Part shown: piece after piece, positions 466-11,092 of the stretch
Layout of the letters: each line of letters starts with the position of its first letter
How positions within the stretch are numbered: the stretch's first letter is position 1
From: Pelobacter seleniigenes DSM 18267
GTDB taxonomy: Bacteria > Desulfobacterota > Desulfuromonadia > Desulfuromonadales > Geopsychrobacteraceae
Length of the DNA: 64,000 bases
Direction of reading: 5' to 3'
NCBI RefSeq assembly: GCF_000711225.1
Contig: NZ_JOMG01000002.1
Coordinates: forward strand, 2,058,501-2,122,500
Position numbers and translations under genes: made by a program
The notes under the pieces: model-generated
Seen by the model: the letters and a program-made list of their open reading frames with translations, nothing else
Told to the model about the DNA's origin: nothing
The model's database searches: none

Positions 466-482
466 AGGGAGGAGGGAAGGTG

Positions 483-2678
483 ATGGAAACCTATTACGCA
501 CATTCGACGGAGAGTCCTGATAAGTCAGGCTGGCAGACGCTGGAAGATCATCTTCAGGGAGTCGCCGGATTAGCCAGAGGATTTGCCGCGGTGTTTGGTG
601 CTGCTGACTGGGGGGAGTTGGCCGGGTTGCTGCATGACGTCGGCAAGGCAACAGCTGCTTTTCAGCGCCGGTTGGAAGGGAATTCCCAGCGGGTCGATCA
701 CACGACTTTTGGTGCGCGGTTGGCTCGTGAGCATGGTGGGCCACTTGGGCCGCTGCTTTCCTATATGATCACCGGCCACCACGGGGGATTGCCGGATGGC
801 GGTGCCCAGGAGACAGAGCTGCACTGGCGGCTGAAGTACGGCAAGGTTCCCGAAGATGCATCGTTGCTGCCGTCGATTGAGTTGCAGAATGTGTTGCGCT
901 GGCCGTTGGAAAAACCGGAAGAAAAAACGGCTGGATTCAGCATGGCATTTTTCACGCGGATGATTTTTTCCTGTCTGGTCGATGCAGACTTTTTGGATAC
1001 GGAAACATTTTGTACGCCGGAAAAAGCTGCACTAAGATCCTCTTTTGATTGTCAGCAGCTAGTCGATCTGCGGGAGAAGCTAAACCTCCATCTGCAAAAG
1101 CTCACGCAAAAGGCCGAACCAACACCGGTGAATCGGCTCCGCCAAGCCATCCTGCAGCAATGCCGGACCAAGGCCGAGCTTGCCCCACAGGTTTTTTCTC
1201 TGACCGTGCCGACTGGCGGAGGGAAAACTCTTTCGTCGCTGGCGTTCGCCCTTGATCACGCCGTTGCCAACAAGTTGCAACGGGTGATCTATGCCATTCC
1301 CTTCACCTCGATCATTGAGCAGAATGCCAGGGTGTTTCAGGATATTCTCGGTCGCGAATCGGTCTTGGAGCATCACTGCAATTACAAAGAAAAAGACGAG
1401 CCGGAAGAGGCGGTTTACAACCGGCGGCGTGGGCTGGCGACGGAAAATTGGGATGCACCGGTCGTGGTGACAACCAATGTGCAGTTTTTCGAATCGTTAT
1501 TCAGCAACAAGCCGTCCCGTTGTCGCAAACTGCACAATATTGCTGGCAGTGTCATCGTGCTGGACGAAGCGCAGGCGATTCCGACCGAATACCTGGAACC
1601 CTGTCTGGCGGCTTTGCGTGAATTGGTTGAGCGCTACGGGTGTTCGTTGGTGCTCTGCACGGCAACCCAGCCCGCTCTGGACGATAGCGCACTGCGTAAT
1701 CGGCTGCCGAAAATCCATGAAGTTATTGAGAGACCGCAACAGCTATATACTGACTTGCGCCGCACCGAGGTTACGTTTATCGGTAAGCTGACCAACGGAG
1801 AATTGGCCGAACGGTTGGCAGCGGATGAGCAGGTCCTCTGTATTGTGTCTACCAAGCCTCAGGCGCGTAAACTGTTCGAGATGTTGCCGCCAAGCGAAGG
1901 CAATTTTCATCTCTCCACCAATATGTATCCCGAGCATCGTCGCCAAGTACTGGACACAATTCGATTGCGTCTAAAACAGAACATGTCCTGCCGAGTTATT
2001 TCCACTTCGCTGGTCGAAGCCGGGGTCGATCTTGATTTTCCCGTCGTCTATCGCGCCATGGCTGGACTCGATTCCATCGCCCAGGCAGCGGGTCGTTGCA
2101 ACCGTGAGGGAAGAATGGCAGGGCTTGGACGGGTCCATGTTTATGAGCCGGAGCAACCGGCGCGCATGCCTTGGGTTAAACGTTGTGCCAGCCGTGCTGA
2201 AGAAGCGTTGCGCAGTTTGCCGGATGCCGATCCAATTGGTTTGGAAGTGATGCGGCGATTTTTTGCCCTGCTTTACGACGTGCAGGAATTGGACAAAAAA
2301 AGCATTTTGTCGGCCTTCCCGAATCAGAAGCAGATTCAGCTCTCCAGAGATTTCTATTTCCCCTTTCACACAGTTGCCGAGTCTTTCCGTTTTATTGGGG
2401 ATGAAACCGTTGGCGTGATCATTCCTATAGAACCGGGGACCGAGGAGTTGGTACGGCAGCTGCGGTACACCGAATTCCCTCGGGCCGTTTTACGTAAACT
2501 GCAAGGGTACAGCGTTGCCGTACGCAATCATGAATTTGCTGTGTTGAATACGGCGGGAGCATTGGAAATGGTGGATGGACAGTTTCCGGTGTTGAGGAAC
2601 CTGTCCGCTTATCGTGATGACGTTGGCTTGTGCGCTGAGCGGGGAGAATATTGGGATCCTGGAGACATGATTGGATAA
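483..2678 (+). CDS. cas3: Type I-C CRISPR-associated helicase/nuclease Cas3
   Basis: Cas3 is the ATP-dependent single-strand nuclease-helicase recruited by Cascade to destroy target DNA. The 731-residue product has an N-terminal HD nuclease domain (LLHDVGK, His-Asp at residues 51-52) and a superfamily 2 helicase core: Walker A VPTGGGKT near residue 242, DEAQ box near 361, CTATQPAL motif III, STSLVEAGVDL motif V and QAAGRCNREG motif VI. GTG 480 and ATG 483 are both possible starts; ATG 483 is better spaced from the upstream GGAGG. The HD and helicase domains are fused, as is usual for I-C. It is followed by an unusual 385-bp spacer rather than by an immediate cas5. Confidence 0.95.
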   Translation: METYYAHSTESPDKSGWQTLEDHLQGVAGLARGFAAVFGAADWGELAGLLHDVGKATAAFQRRLEGNSQRVDHTTFGARLAREHGGPLGPLLSYMITGHHGGLPDGGAQETELHWRLKYGKVPEDASLLPSIELQNVLRWPLEKPEEKTAGFSMAFFTRMIFSCLVDADFLDTETFCTPEKAALRSSFDCQQLVDLREKLNLHLQKLTQKAEPTPVNRLRQAILQQCRTKAELAPQVFSLTVPTGGGKTLSSLAFALDHAVANKLQRVIYAIPFTSIIEQNARVFQDILGRESVLEHHCNYKEKDEPEEAVYNRRRGLATENWDAPVVVTTNVQFFESLFSNKPSRCRKLHNIAGSVIVLDEAQAIPTEYLEPCLAALRELVERYGCSLVLCTATQPALDDSALRNRLPKIHEVIERPQQLYTDLRRTEVTFIGKLTNGELAERLAADEQVLCIVSTKPQARKLFEMLPPSEGNFHLSTNMYPEHRRQVLDTIRLRLKQNMSCRVISTSLVEAGVDLDFPVVYRAMAGLDSIAQAAGRCNREGRMAGLGRVHVYEPEQPARMPWVKRCASRAEEALRSLPDADPIGLEVMRRFFALLYDVQELDKKSILSAFPNQKQIQLSRDFYFPFHTVAESFRFIGDETVGVIIPIEPGTEELVRQLRYTEFPRAVLRKLQGYSVAVRNHEFAVLNTAGALEMVDGQFPVLRNLSAYRDDVGLCAERGEYWDPGDMIG

Positions 2679-2683
2679 ATCAA

Positions 2684-2720
2684 TTCATAAGATAGAGCTA
2701 GCTACTAAAAAAATCTTGAC
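2684..2720 (+). promoter_or_regulatory. Putative Cascade target site and -35 upstream of the mini-ORF
   Basis: TTC (2684-2686), the known type I-C PAM, is followed at 2687 by ATAAGATAGAGCTAGCT. Its first 17 bases match the pseudo-spacer at 2904 in 14 places. In the first 11 bases only position 6 differs, and that base is flipped out and not read in type I effectors. A 34-base protospacer from 2687 would reach a -35-like TTGACG at 2716-2721. The matching -10 (tagcct, 2739) is weak. Inference: Cascade loaded with the pseudo-spacer RNA could sit here and repress the promoter without cleavage, because the PAM-distal half does not pair. Confidence 0.6.
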
Positions 2721-2732
2721 GGATTCATTTCT

Positions 2733-2761
2733 CTCCATTAGCCTTATTGAAACTAATGGAG
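2733..2761 (+). promoter_or_regulatory. Hairpin covering the ribosome site of the mini-ORF
   Basis: CTCCATTAG (2733-2741) and CTAATGGAG (2753-2761) form a perfect 9-bp stem with an 11-base loop. The right arm contains GGAG of the GGAGG ribosome site at 2758-2762, so the folded RNA would hide it. It could instead be a weak terminator after cas3, but no T tract follows. Confidence 0.5.
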
Positions 2762-2767
2762 GTTTTA

Positions 2768-2860
2768 ATGAAGTTTCGACGGAAAATGACCTTTAGGCTA
2801 AGGCTGGCACTGTTTGGTAAAGATCTTTTTGGTTTAGAAGTTGAATTGGAGCCTCCATAG
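2768..2860 (+). CDS. 30-aa mini-ORF, CreT-like candidate
   Basis: This is a short frame of 30 codons beginning ATG AAG TTT CGA CGG, with AGG CTA AGG soon after. The predicted peptide starts MKFRRKMTFRLRLALFG and is basic at the front and acidic at the end. GGAGG sits 5 bases before the ATG, a near-optimal ribosome site. It lies between cas3 and cas5c, just upstream of a degenerate CRISPR repeat. In described CreT toxins a mini-ORF with a strong ribosome site and rare arginine codons ties up a scarce tRNA. The layout here fits, but toxicity, codon rarity in this genome and translation are untested. It could also be an ordinary leader peptide or chance. Confidence 0.45.
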   Translation: MKFRRKMTFRLRLALFGKDLFGLEVELEPP

Positions 2861-2873
2861 GTGCGTTTCATTA

Positions 2874-2954
2874 GTCGCTCTGCATAGGGGCGTGGGTTGA
2901 AACATAAGGTAGAGTAAGCTCAAAAAGGTGCGGGCCGTCAGAATGACGGCCCGC
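2874..2954 (+). ncRNA. CRISPR-repeat-like RNA (CreA/CreR-type candidate)
   Basis: Bases 2874-2903 form a degenerate copy of the array repeat. The first 7 bases (gtcgctc) are identical, a shortened CGCTC/GGGCG stem remains, and the last 11 bases (TGGGTTGAAAC) differ from the array repeat handle at one position. A pseudo-spacer starts at 2904 with ATAAGGTAGAGTAAGCT and matches the TTC-flanked site at 2687. A perfect 11-bp hairpin (GCGGGCCGTCA, loop GAA, at 2930-2954) closes the unit where a second repeat would normally be. Inference: Cas5c processes this RNA into a short guide that represses a promoter in the same spacer. I see no clear promoter of its own. Confidence 0.6.
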
Positions 2955-2961
2955 AAATCTC

Positions 2962-5477
<2,516 letters not shown>

Positions 5478-5480
5478 ACC

Positions 5481-6341
5481 ATGACTGCTATTGCTAATCG
5501 CTACGAATTTGCTCTGTTGTTCGATGTTCAAAATGGTAACCCCAACGGTGATCCCGATGCCGGCAACACTCCGCGTGTCGATCCTGAAACCGGTCATGGG
5601 CTAGTGACTGATGTCTGCCTGAAAAGGAAAATTCGCAATCATGTGGCGCTGGCCAAAGAGGGCGCTGAAGGTTTCAATATTTACGTGCAGGAGAAGGCAG
5701 TACTCAATCGCACCAACGAAATGGCCTACAAAGAATTTGATCTGAAACCGGAGGCGAAAAAACTCCCGAAAAAGATTGAAGATGCACAGAAGGTGACCGG
5801 CTGGATGTGCGCCAATTTTTACGATATCCGTAGCTTCGGCGCTGTTATGACGACCGAAGTCAATTGCGGGCAGGTGCGTGGTCCGGTTCAGTTGGCTTTT
5901 GCAACCAGCGTCGAGCCGATTCTTTCCCAAGAGGTCAGTATTACCCGCATGGCGGTAACCAATGAGAAGGACCTGGAAAAAGAACGCACCATGGGACGCA
6001 AGCACATTGTCCCTTATGGTTTGTATATCGCCAAAGGGTTTATTTCGGCGTCATTGGCCGAGAAAACCGGCTTCGGGGAGGAGGATCTTGAGTTGCTCTG
6101 GAATGCCCTGATTAACATGTTTGAGCATGATCGGTCTGCAGCGAGGGGAATGATGAGCAGTCAGAAGTTGTTTGTCTTCAAGCACCAGGACAAACTTGGT
6201 AATGCGCCCGCTCACAAGCTGTTTGATCTGATCGACATCCAACGCAACAGCCATTCCGAGGGCCCGGCCCGGGCGTTTAAGGATTATACGGTGACGGTCG
6301 GTGAGGCTCCTTCCGGGGTGGAGATTATTGAGAAGTTGTGA
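5481..6341 (+). CDS. cas7c: Type I-C Cascade backbone Cas7 (Csd2)
   Basis: Cas7 forms the helical backbone that binds crRNA. The 286-residue protein shows the Csd2 signature near the N-terminus (FDVQNGNPNGDPDAGNTPR), then DVCLKRKIRNHV, and RSFGAVMTTEVNCGQVRGPV in the middle. A strong ribosome site (caggaggg) precedes ATG 5481. In most I-C loci cas4 follows directly; here 516 bases carrying a DUF559 gene and two palindromic repeats come between. Confidence 0.95.
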   Translation: MTAIANRYEFALLFDVQNGNPNGDPDAGNTPRVDPETGHGLVTDVCLKRKIRNHVALAKEGAEGFNIYVQEKAVLNRTNEMAYKEFDLKPEAKKLPKKIEDAQKVTGWMCANFYDIRSFGAVMTTEVNCGQVRGPVQLAFATSVEPILSQEVSITRMAVTNEKDLEKERTMGRKHIVPYGLYIAKGFISASLAEKTGFGEEDLELLWNALINMFEHDRSAARGMMSSQKLFVFKHQDKLGNAPAHKLFDLIDIQRNSHSEGPARAFKDYTVTVGEAPSGVEIIEKL

Positions 6342-6346
6342 TGAAG

Positions 6347-6394
6347 GAATCCCCCCTGGCCCCCCTTTGTTAAAGGGGGGTAATAGGGGAGGGT
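6347..6394. repeat. C/G-rich palindromic repeat, copy 2
   Basis: The repeat begins GAATCCCCCC, and its core CCCCCCTTT...AAAGGGGGG (6359-6380) forms a long hairpin, 6 bases after the cas7c stop. It belongs to the same family as the copies at 2962 and 6779 and forms the left border of the DUF559 gene. Confidence 0.75.
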
Positions 6395-6415
6395 GGTTTT
6401 CTAGGAGGGGGAGAT

Positions 6416-6784
6416 GTGCTTGAGTACAATCGTGCATTAAAGCGACCGTCGCGGGATTTGCGGCGGAATATGACTGTTGCCGAGCAAGTTCTGTGGTCTG
6501 GTTTGCGGCGCAAGCAACTGCTGGGCGTGCAGTTTTACCGGCAGAAACCGCTTGGCCATTTCATTGTCGATTTTTTCGCTCCAGCGGCCAAGTTGGTTGT
6601 CGAGGTTGATGGCGGCCAACATTTAGATGCTGAACATCAAGTCCGGGATCAATTGCGGGACGAATATCTTGCAGAGCAAGGTTTGCTGGTCTTGAGATTC
6701 GACAATCTGCAGGTCTTGAAAGAGACCGATGCGGTCCTCAAACAAATTTTTCAGCAGCTGCAGAAACGACTGTCCACTCCCTAA
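6416..6784 (+). CDS. DUF559 (Vsr-like endonuclease fold) protein
   Basis: The 122-residue protein matches the DUF559 family, a small PD-(D/E)XK or Vsr-like nuclease fold whose substrate is unknown. Visible hallmarks are LRRNMTVAEQVLWSGLRRKQ, the conserved LGVQFYRQKPLGHFIVDFF block and the acidic VVEVDGGQH motif near residue 65, followed by RDEYLAEQGLLVLRF. The start appears to be GTG 6416, behind AGGAGGGG. Palindromic repeats of one family border it on both sides and its stop lies inside the right-hand copy. It breaks the cas7-cas4 junction, so it was probably inserted rather than being an original Cas component. Confidence 0.85.
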   Translation: MLEYNRALKRPSRDLRRNMTVAEQVLWSGLRRKQLLGVQFYRQKPLGHFIVDFFAPAAKLVVEVDGGQHLDAEHQVRDQLRDEYLAEQGLLVLRFDNLQVLKETDAVLKQIFQQLQKRLSTP

Positions 6785-6843
6785 CCCTTTGATAAAGCCC
6801 ACAAAAAACTCCCCCTTTCAGAAAGGGGGATTGAGGGGGATTC
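6779..6843. repeat. C/G-rich palindromic repeat, copy 3
   Basis: Its core is CCCCCTTT CAG AAAGGGGG (6811-6829), with the right end ATTGAGGGGGATTC as in copy 1. It overlaps the DUF559 stop codon on one side and ends 15 bases before the cas4 ATG on the other. Confidence 0.75.
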
Positions 6844-6857
6844 ATAAAGGAGGGTCC

Positions 6858-7481
6858 ATGTATCACGAAGCTGACTACATCATGCTCTCGGCACTGCAGC
6901 ATTACCTGTTCTGCCCTCGCCAATGCGCACTTATTCATCTGGAACAGCAGTGGGCCGAGAACCGCTTCACCGCCGAAGGCAGAATCCTCCACGAACGGGC
7001 CGACAGCAGCAAGAATGAACGTAAGGGGTCGGTGTTGATCGTGCGCACCTTGCCGATCAGTTCGGCCCGGTTGGGACTGGCCGGGCAGGCCGATGTGGTG
7101 GAGTTTCATGATGACGGCACGGTGTTTCCGGTGGAATACAAACGTGGCCGCCCCAAAAAAGATCATAGCGACGAGGTCCAACTGTGCGCCCAAGCCTTAT
7201 GTCTGGAAGAGATGCTGCAACTGGATATTCCTGCCGGAGCATTGTTCTATGGGCAGAAGAAACGCCGCAAAGAGATTGCTTTTGATCCGGCCTTGCGCCA
7301 ACTGACCGAACAAGTTTGCCGCGCTGTTCATGAGCTGATCTCCGGGCAGCGGACCCCGGCAGCCGTTTTTGATCAGAAATGTGAGCAGTGTTCGCTGCTG
7401 CAAGTCTGCATGCCGAAGGGTTGCACCGAGCAACGCTCGGTCAGCCGTTATCTGATCCGAATGCTGGAGGGGGAGCGATGA
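6858..7481 (+). CDS. cas4: CRISPR adaptation exonuclease Cas4
   Basis: Cas4 trims prespacers and sets PAM orientation with Cas1-Cas2. The 207-residue protein starts at ATG 6858 behind AAGGAGGG; the open frame extends further upstream but has no support there. The iron-sulfur cysteines are visible at both ends: CPRQC at residues 19-23 and CEQCSLLQVC...C near the C-terminus. RecB-type nuclease residues appear in GQADVVEF and PVEYKRGRPKK. The stop overlaps the cas1 start as ATGA. Confidence 0.93.
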   Translation: MYHEADYIMLSALQHYLFCPRQCALIHLEQQWAENRFTAEGRILHERADSSKNERKGSVLIVRTLPISSARLGLAGQADVVEFHDDGTVFPVEYKRGRPKKDHSDEVQLCAQALCLEEMLQLDIPAGALFYGQKKRRKEIAFDPALRQLTEQVCRAVHELISGQRTPAAVFDQKCEQCSLLQVCMPKGCTEQRSVSRYLIRMLEGER

Positions 7482-8509
7482 GAAAAATGCTGAACACCCT
7501 GTATGTCACCACCCAGGGGGCTTATCTGCATAAAGAGGGTGAAACCGTTGTCGTCCAGGTCGATAAAGAGAACAAACTGCGCCTGCCGGTGATCACCCTG
7601 AGTTCGATTGTCTGCTTTGGAAATGTCCTGTGCAGTCCGTTTTTGCTGGGGCATTGCGCCGAGAACGATGTCGCGGTCAGTTTTATGACCGAATACGGCC
7701 GTTTCCTGGCCCGGGTCCAGGGGCCGGTCTCGGGCAATGTGCTGCTGCGACGCGAACAGTATCGCCGGGCCGATTGTGACCGCTCATCGGCGGAGTTGGC
7801 TCGTATGTTTGTGCTGGGCAAGGTCGCCAATGCCAGGACCATCCTCCAGCGCGGCCTGCGGGATCATGGGGCAAAGGCACCAGCCGAAGGACTGGACCAG
7901 GCCTGTCGGCAACTGGCTCATTACAGTAAGCGGTTGCTACAGGAAGACGACCTGGAAAGCATCCGCGGCGTCGAGGGGCGCACGGCCAGGGATTATTTTG
8001 ATCAATTCGACAGCCTGATTGTGACCCGTAAGCAGGATTTTGTTTTTTCCGGCCGGAATCGGCGGCCGCCACGGGACAGAGTCAACTGTTTACTGTCCTT
8101 TGTCTATGCACTGCTCTATCACGATACCCGCTCCGCATTGGAAACTGTCGGGCTTGACCCTGCCGTCGGCTTTCTGCATCGGGATCGTCCCGGCCGGCTG
8201 AGCCTGGCCCTGGATTTGATGGAAGAATTTCGCCCGTTCTTAGCGGATCGCCTGGTATTGTCGCTGATCAATCTGGGGCAGGTCAAAAACAAGGGATTTG
8301 AAGTGACCGCCTCCGGTGCGGTCAGAATGGATGACGAGACCCGCAAAACCGTTTTGGTGGCCTATCAGAAGCGCAAGCAGGAAGAGATTGAGCATCCCTT
8401 TTTACAGGAAAAAATCCCCGTCGGCATGCTGGTTTTTGCTCAGGCGCAACTGCTGAGCCGCTACCTGCGCAGTGACCTGGACGCGTATCCGCCGTTTTTA
8501 TGGAGGTGA
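7478..8509 (+). CDS. cas1: Type I-C CRISPR integrase Cas1
   Basis: Cas1 is the metal-dependent integrase that inserts new spacers with Cas2. ATG 7478 overlaps the cas4 stop. The 343-residue protein begins MRKMLNTLYVTTQGAYLH and carries the active-site region LHRDRPGRLSLALDLMEE, with the conserved His and Asp, followed by FRPFLADR. Length and motifs are normal for Cas1c, and nothing suggests inactivation. Confidence 0.95.
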   Translation: MRKMLNTLYVTTQGAYLHKEGETVVVQVDKENKLRLPVITLSSIVCFGNVLCSPFLLGHCAENDVAVSFMTEYGRFLARVQGPVSGNVLLRREQYRRADCDRSSAELARMFVLGKVANARTILQRGLRDHGAKAPAEGLDQACRQLAHYSKRLLQEDDLESIRGVEGRTARDYFDQFDSLIVTRKQDFVFSGRNRRPPRDRVNCLLSFVYALLYHDTRSALETVGLDPAVGFLHRDRPGRLSLALDLMEEFRPFLADRLVLSLINLGQVKNKGFEVTASGAVRMDDETRKTVLVAYQKRKQEEIEHPFLQEKIPVGMLVFAQAQLLSRYLRSDLDAYPPFLWR

Positions 8510-8983: not shown

Positions 8984-11058
<2,075 letters not shown>

Positions 11059-11092
11059 CGACGAAAGCAAATCAGCGGTCGGGGATTTTTGC

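What the first reader, a model, noticed from the sequence alone, without database searches (positions are those of the whole stretch)
2733..2860. 30-codon mini-ORF with strong but foldable ribosome site and clustered rare-type Arg codons
GGAGG stands 5 bases before ATG 2768 but is also in the arm of a perfect 9-bp hairpin. Early codons include CGA, CGG, AGG, CTA and AGG. In CreT toxins a strong ribosome site plus rare arginine codons sequesters a tRNA. Position upstream of the CreA-like RNA fits. Alternatives: a leader peptide controlling cas5, or a small peptide with its own role.
Basis: partly seen in the sequence, partly recalled or inferred. Interest (0 to 1): 0.75.

Follow-up and report, generated by a model that had tools for sequence, protein, structure and literature searches.

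The report
CRISPR-silenced mini-gene in type I-C locus
Inside a type I-C CRISPR immune locus sits a 30-codon gene whose promoter region matches a CRISPR-like guide RNA encoded just behind it, so the CRISPR machinery probably keeps this possibly toxic mini-gene switched off; the same unit recurs in distant relatives, with the peptide conserved but not the rare codons.

Summary
The mini-ORF is real and belongs to a CreTA-like module between cas3 and cas5 of a type I-C locus: a TTC-flanked target, a promoter, the mini-ORF (creT), then a crRNA-like gene (creA: degenerate repeat, pseudo-spacer, second hairpin). Nine such loci were found in one bacterial class. In all nine the pseudo-spacer matches a nearby TTC-flanked target; mismatches concentrate at positions 6 and 12, the bases Cascade flips out (12/18 versus 8/135 elsewhere, P=8e-9). 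Guides and targets co-vary between loci.

Five genomes keep an intact mini-ORF. It is conserved as a peptide (pN/pS 0.38) and always ends Pro-Pro(CCA)-stop, an ending seen in 0 of 275 sampled ORFs of this genome. Arg codons are mostly rare types but change in identity, tRNA and position, so trapping of one rare Arg tRNA is unlikely. The 9-bp hairpin exists, but its left arm overlaps the inferred -10 and is probably not in the mRNA.

Best reading: a type I-C CreTA variant whose toxin acts through its peptide, perhaps by arresting terminating ribosomes. Cascade-guided repression is strongly inferred; toxicity is untested. Autoregulation of cas genes (CreR) is the main rival: two relatives without creT look like that.

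The parts
2684..2703 (+). Cascade target: TTC PAM 2684-2686 and protospacer 2687-2703 matching the pseudo-spacer at 14 of 17 bases
   Evidence: random 17-mers never exceeded 12/15 at the non-flipped positions, observed 14/15
2716..2744 (+). inferred creT promoter: -35 TTGACG 2716-2721, N17, -10 TAGCCT 2739-2744; start site about 2751
   Evidence: same -35/N17/-10 at the same distance in 7 loci; a plain consensus scan does not call it
2733..2761 (+).
2757..2762 (+). Shine-Dalgarno TGGAGG
   Evidence: strong ribosome site in all the relatives with the ORF
2768..2860 (+). creT-like mini-ORF, 30 codons; conserved 24-residue core from 2786; ends Pro-Pro-stop (2852-2860)
2835..2863 (+). possible creA promoter inside the 3' end of the ORF: TAGAAG 2835-2840, N17, TAGGTG 2858-2863
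   Evidence: same spacing in 7 loci, and G028 kept just this stretch after losing creT; matches to consensus are weak
2874..2903 (+). creA pseudo-repeat 1: degenerate copy of the array repeat, 11 of last 12 bases kept, hairpin kept
2904..2928 (+). creA pseudo-spacer; the first 17 bases match the target
2929..2955 (+). creA pseudo-repeat 2 hairpin (likely 3' handle)
   Evidence: hairpin in all nine loci with changed but paired bases; fold z -4.25 for 2871-2962
480..2678 (+). cas3
3064..3729 (+). cas5c (expected processing nuclease for CreA)
3720..5477 (+). cas8c
5481..6341 (+). cas7
8984..11060 (+). CRISPR array, repeat GTCGCTCCCCACGCGGGAGCGTGGATTGAAAC

Best explanation
This is a CreTA-like module of a type I-C CRISPR-Cas system. 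A crRNA-like RNA (CreA: pseudo-repeat 1, pseudo-spacer, pseudo-repeat 2 hairpin) is made behind the mini-ORF and should be processed by Cas5c. It guides Cascade to a TTC-flanked, partially matching site just upstream of the mini-ORF promoter and blocks transcription; the match is too short for a full R-loop, so Cas3 should not cut. If Cascade is lost or inhibited, the mini-ORF is transcribed and strongly translated, and its product should slow or stop growth. Because the peptide and not the codons is conserved, and it always ends Pro-Pro-stop, the product most likely acts as a peptide; the variant I favour is arrest of terminating ribosomes. Strongly supported by sequence: guide/target pairing, PAM, module anatomy, peptide-level selection. 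Inferred only: CreA expression, repression, toxicity, ribosome arrest.
For: Guide/target match with TTC PAM at nine loci, mismatches at positions 6 and 12 (P=7.6e-9); each guide fits its own target (14.1/15) far better than those of others (7.7/15); target on either strand, always by the promoter; both creA hairpins keep pairing through base changes; degenerate repeats keep 9-12 of 12 handle bases of their own array repeat; five intact peptides in 277 genomes, all in such modules; pN/pS 0.38; Pro-Pro-stop invariant against 0 of 275 genome ORFs; C-terminal Pro-Pro interferes with termination in E. coli (PMC3834316); creT is broken or missing in G074, G076 and G028 while guide and target persist, as expected of a repressed toxin that can be lost.
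Against: No toxicity, expression or repression data. Only five intact ORFs of 24 codons, so selection estimates are rough; the 3' end may be conserved partly as creA promoter. The creT promoter points at the cas genes, so Cascade binding may serve autoregulation instead. In Acinetobacter I-F a conserved mini-ORF proved to be an RNA toxin whose peptide did not matter (PMC10097628).
Confidence: 0.5

Rival explanations
1. CreR-type autoregulation: the crRNA-like RNA guides Cascade to repress the promoter in front of its own cas genes; the mini-ORF is a leader or accessory peptide, not a toxin.
For: The target promoter points towards cas5 (in G091 towards the whole cas3-cas5-cas8-cas7 operon) and no intrinsic terminator on the + strand directly follows creA, although a weak one is called at 2975-2995. 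G028 lacks creT and G566 has no ORF, yet both keep guide and target, in G566 over its own -10. CreR is known in type I systems (PMC12737573).
Against: Does not explain a conserved peptide with a strong ribosome site under its own promoter in five genomes, in two different gene orders.
Confidence: 0.25
2. Translation-coupled leader: the ribosome arrested at Pro-Pro-stop sits against pseudo-repeat 1 and tunes folding or processing of CreA, or expression of downstream cas genes.
For: The distance from stop codon to repeat handle is nearly constant, 33-37 nt. TnaC, a 24-residue leader ending in Pro, works by arrest at its stop codon (own knowledge).
Against: A creA promoter at the end of the ORF would explain the same constancy; the downstream gene differs (cas5, or cas3 in G091); several relatives keep creA without an intact ORF.
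Confidence: 0.09
3. tRNA-sequestering CreT: strong initiation plus rare Arg (or Leu, or Pro CCA) codons deplete a tRNA.
For: CGA, AGG, CTA and CCA are rare here; 12 of 15 Arg codons in the family are rare types and the last codon is CCA in all; this mechanism is known in two haloarchaea (PMC8501985).
Against: No Arg codon conserved in place or tRNA; Lys substitutes for Arg; G091 has no AGA/AGG. Rare codons may only reflect an A+T-rich stretch. Known tRNA-sequestering ORFs are very short with two adjacent rare codons.
Confidence: 0.08
4. RNA toxin as in Acinetobacter I-F CreT: the folded creT RNA itself, not its peptide, is toxic.
For: The window RNA from 2751 folds better than shuffles (z -2.7); precedent in PMC10097628.
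Against: The fold is not shared by most relatives, while the peptide is, through synonymous change.
Confidence: 0.08

Closest known systems
CreTA of Haloarcula hispanica and Halobacterium hubeiense (type I-B; PMC8501985)
   Same: crRNA-like RNA with degenerate repeats, partial PAM-flanked match to the promoter of a mini-ORF with strong initiation, inside the cas locus
   Different: There the mini-ORF is very short, with two adjacent rare codons that trap a tRNA; here 24-30 codons, peptide conserved, rare codons not fixed; type I-C has no cas6
CreTA of Acinetobacter sp. WCHA45 (type I-F; PMC10097628)
   Same: Bacterial; sits between cas3 and the next cas gene; two pseudo-repeats; conserved mini-ORF with strong Shine-Dalgarno; found in only some close relatives
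   Different: There creT and creA diverge, the ORF is 33 bp and its nucleotides, not its peptide, are toxic; here same orientation, longer ORF, synonymous changes tolerated in evolution, canonical seed matching
CreR (Cas-regulating RNA of type I and V-A; reviewed in PMC12737573)
   Same: crRNA-like guide directing Cas effector to a promoter in front of cas genes; G028 and G566 fit it well
   Different: CreR is generally not coupled to a toxin-like ORF; the window and six others have one or its remains
CrePA (reviewed in PMC12737573)
   Same: CreA-guided repression of a polypeptide toxin
   Different: CreP is typically a KilA-N protein acting on cell division; the product here is a 24-30 residue peptide with no known domain

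Membership tests
CreTA | crRNA-like gene with one or two degenerate repeats next to cas genes | tested here: met
   pseudo-repeats at 2874-2903 and 2929-2955, handle and hairpin kept
CreTA | pseudo-spacer partially complementary to a PAM-flanked site at the creT promoter | tested here: met
   TTC + 14/17 match 13 nt upstream of the inferred -35; nine loci
CreTA | creT with strong translation initiation signals | tested here: met
   TGGAGG five bases before ATG; strong site in relatives
CreTA | creT toxic when Cascade is absent | not testable with these tools
   needs bench work
CreTA | creT acts as RNA rather than through its product | tested here: inconclusive
   peptide-level conservation, pN/pS 0.38, argues against but does not prove
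tRNA-sequestering CreT subtype | fixed rare codons read by one rare tRNA | tested here: not met
   Arg codons vary across CGA, CGC, CGG, AGA, AGG and Lys; only the last CCA is fixed
CreR | guide targets the promoter of cas genes | tested here: inconclusive
   target promoter points to cas5 but lies before creT; whether transcripts reach cas5 is unknown
CreR | no toxin-like gene in the unit | tested here: not met
   conserved mini-ORF in the window; met in G028 and G566
CrePA | CreP protein toxin, typically with KilA-N domain | tested here: not met
   no Pfam, NCBIfam or PHROGs match for the peptide

The most novel reading that the evidence does not exclude
A CRISPR-repressed peptide toxin that works by jamming translation termination: a short, strongly initiated ORF whose invariant Pro-Pro(CCA)-stop traps ribosomes and tRNA-Pro, held off by a type I-C Cascade with a crRNA-like guide. 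It would be a third kind of CRISPR-linked toxin besides RNA CreT and protein CreP.
Probability: 0.22. Interest if true: 0.82.

Novelty: new variant of a known kind. Interest (0 to 1): 0.64.

Why it matters
The CreTA modules in the papers read lie beside cas6 or, in one I-F group, beside cas3, and act as RNA toxins. A type I-C form, shared by two I-C lineages and with a peptide-level signature, suggests that CRISPR addiction or self-regulation modules are wider and chemically more varied than described. The set of intact, decayed and toxin-less loci lets the passage from CreTA to CreR be studied, and one promoter, one 30-codon ORF and one guide are enough to test it in laboratory strains.

Tried and rejected
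Mini-ORF as a duplicated Cas5 N-terminus (they look alike around xKLRxxG): profile comparison P=0.06 over 7 columns, rejected. Shine-Dalgarno locked by the ORF end: 14 bp in the window and 11 bp in G141, but not in G074, G104 or G541, so not a shared mechanism. Known RNA family: only sub-threshold Rfam matches, none credible. Copies of the peptide in plasmids and phages: none; viral contigs: none; phylum sample of 395 genomes: only the window genome and G141. Weak hits (E 1e-5 to 0.01), seven of them inside frames of about 317 aa, judged chance. Structure prediction with two sequences: one helix, mean pLDDT 76, pTM 0.34, not used as evidence. Module elsewhere in loci with a tight cas3-cas5 junction: not found in the stretches fetched.

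Full report
What was checked. CGA, AGG and CTA are rare in this genome, CGG is not. The surroundings are cas3 (480-2678), cas5c, cas8c, cas7, then reading frames that look like cas4, cas1 and cas2 and an array with the 32-nt repeat GTCGCTCCCCACGCGGGAGCGTGGATTGAAAC: type I-C.

The guide and its target. Behind the ORF, 2874-2903 is a degenerate repeat that keeps 11 of the last 12 bases of the array repeat. The next 17 bases (2904-2920) match 2687-2703, right behind a TTC, the usual type I-C PAM (own knowledge), with mismatches only at positions 6, 12 and 13. Cascade flips out every sixth base, so 6 and 12 need not pair (established for type I Cascade; own knowledge). A search with Cas5 in 244 genomes of the class gave 42 loci. 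Seven besides the window have the same guide-and-target arrangement between cas3 and cas5, and G091, a different type I-C lineage, has it in front of cas3. Over the nine loci, mismatches fall at 6 or 12 in 12 of 18 cases and elsewhere in 8 of 135 (P=7.6e-9; the loci are related, so not fully independent). Each guide fits its own target (mean 14.1 of 15) far better than those of others (7.7), and the target lies on either strand. Both repeat hairpins keep pairing through sequence change (59/59 and 88/89 pairs; the stems were picked by eye). This is strong evidence for Cascade-guided regulation, but still inference from sequence.

The promoter and the hairpin. All seven loci with an ORF or its remains have a -35/N17/-10 ending 22-30 nt before the start codon; in the window TTGACG/TAGCCT, start near 2751. 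A plain consensus scan does not call it; the case rests on the comparison. The target lies just upstream of it, and a full-length complex would reach the -35. The left arm of the 9-bp repeat is in the -10 region, so the 'foldable ribosome site' would hold only for read-through RNA, where it could silence translation. Comparable repeats exist in G104 and G091 only. In RNA starting at 2751 the ribosome site is predicted to pair with the end of the ORF instead (14 bp, z -2.7), but most relatives do not share this.

The peptide. A profile of the core found five intact members in the 277 genomes of the class, all in such modules. They share M-x-[FI]-[RK]-x-[RK]-[LVI]-x-x-F-G-[RK]-x-[FL]-x-x-x-E-[VI]-x-[LM]-[EK]-P-P-stop. 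pN/pS is 0.38 pooled and 0.16 for the closest pair; the other two frames give 0.70 and 2.2. Arg codons are mostly rare types but differ by position and by tRNA. Pro-Pro-stop with CCA last is invariant, while none of 275 genome ORFs ends in Pro-Pro. C-terminal Pro-Pro interferes with termination and arrests ribosomes in E. coli (PMC3834316). The end of the ORF may also carry the creA promoter (TTGAAA-like, N17, TAG or TAA; G028 kept just this stretch after losing creT), which could account for part of the conservation of Glu18 and of the stop codon but not for the N-terminal half.

Loss series. G074 has a frameshift, G076 a deletion, and G028 lacks most of creT, while guide and target persist, and the Cascade genes read through in G074 and G076 (the G028 contig ends soon after cas5). 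G566 has guide and target over its own -10 and no ORF. On a Cas5 tree, loci with and without the module are interspersed, so it is often lost or gained. This is what one expects of a repressed toxin that can be lost while repression holds, and it shows how a CreTA could turn into a CreR.

Comparison. Reported CreTA modules lie by cas6 or, in Acinetobacter I-F, beside cas3 (PMC10097628, PMC8501985). In the papers I could search and read I found no type I-C member; papers outside the held library, among them the original CreTA, CreR and CrePA reports, were not read. The module works like CreTA in the anatomical features testable here. Toxicity is not tested, and RNA-only action is made less likely. 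I file it as a CreTA-like variant, not as a proven member.

Noticed in passing
2975-3040, 6347-6395, 6810-6845: Copies of a REP-like palindromic element (CCCCCTTTGAAAAAGGGGGATTGAGGGGGATTC). One separates creA from cas5, two flank a DUF559 ORF (6416-6784) lodged between cas7 and cas4.
   Followed up: no
9744-9843: A spacer of the array is duplicated in tandem with its repeat; the array ends in a degenerate repeat near 11028.
   Followed up: no
2751-2872: Predicted 14-bp pairing of ribosome site and start codon with the end of the ORF in creT RNA; strong only here and in G141.
   Followed up: partly
L024 1338-1515 (G028): creT almost wholly deleted, but target, the piece with the possible creA promoter, and creA kept: looks like a CreTA turned into CreR.
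   Followed up: partly
L046 1320-1515 (G566): crRNA-like gene between cas3 and cas5 with no ORF, whose target overlaps its own -10: CreR-like.
   Followed up: partly
7388-8509: The reading frame that looks like cas1 uses AGG and AGA for 20 of 38 Arg codons, unlike cas3, cas5, cas8c and cas7 (9-18% rare types); the frame counted (7479-8509) may be off, so this needs checking.
   Followed up: no
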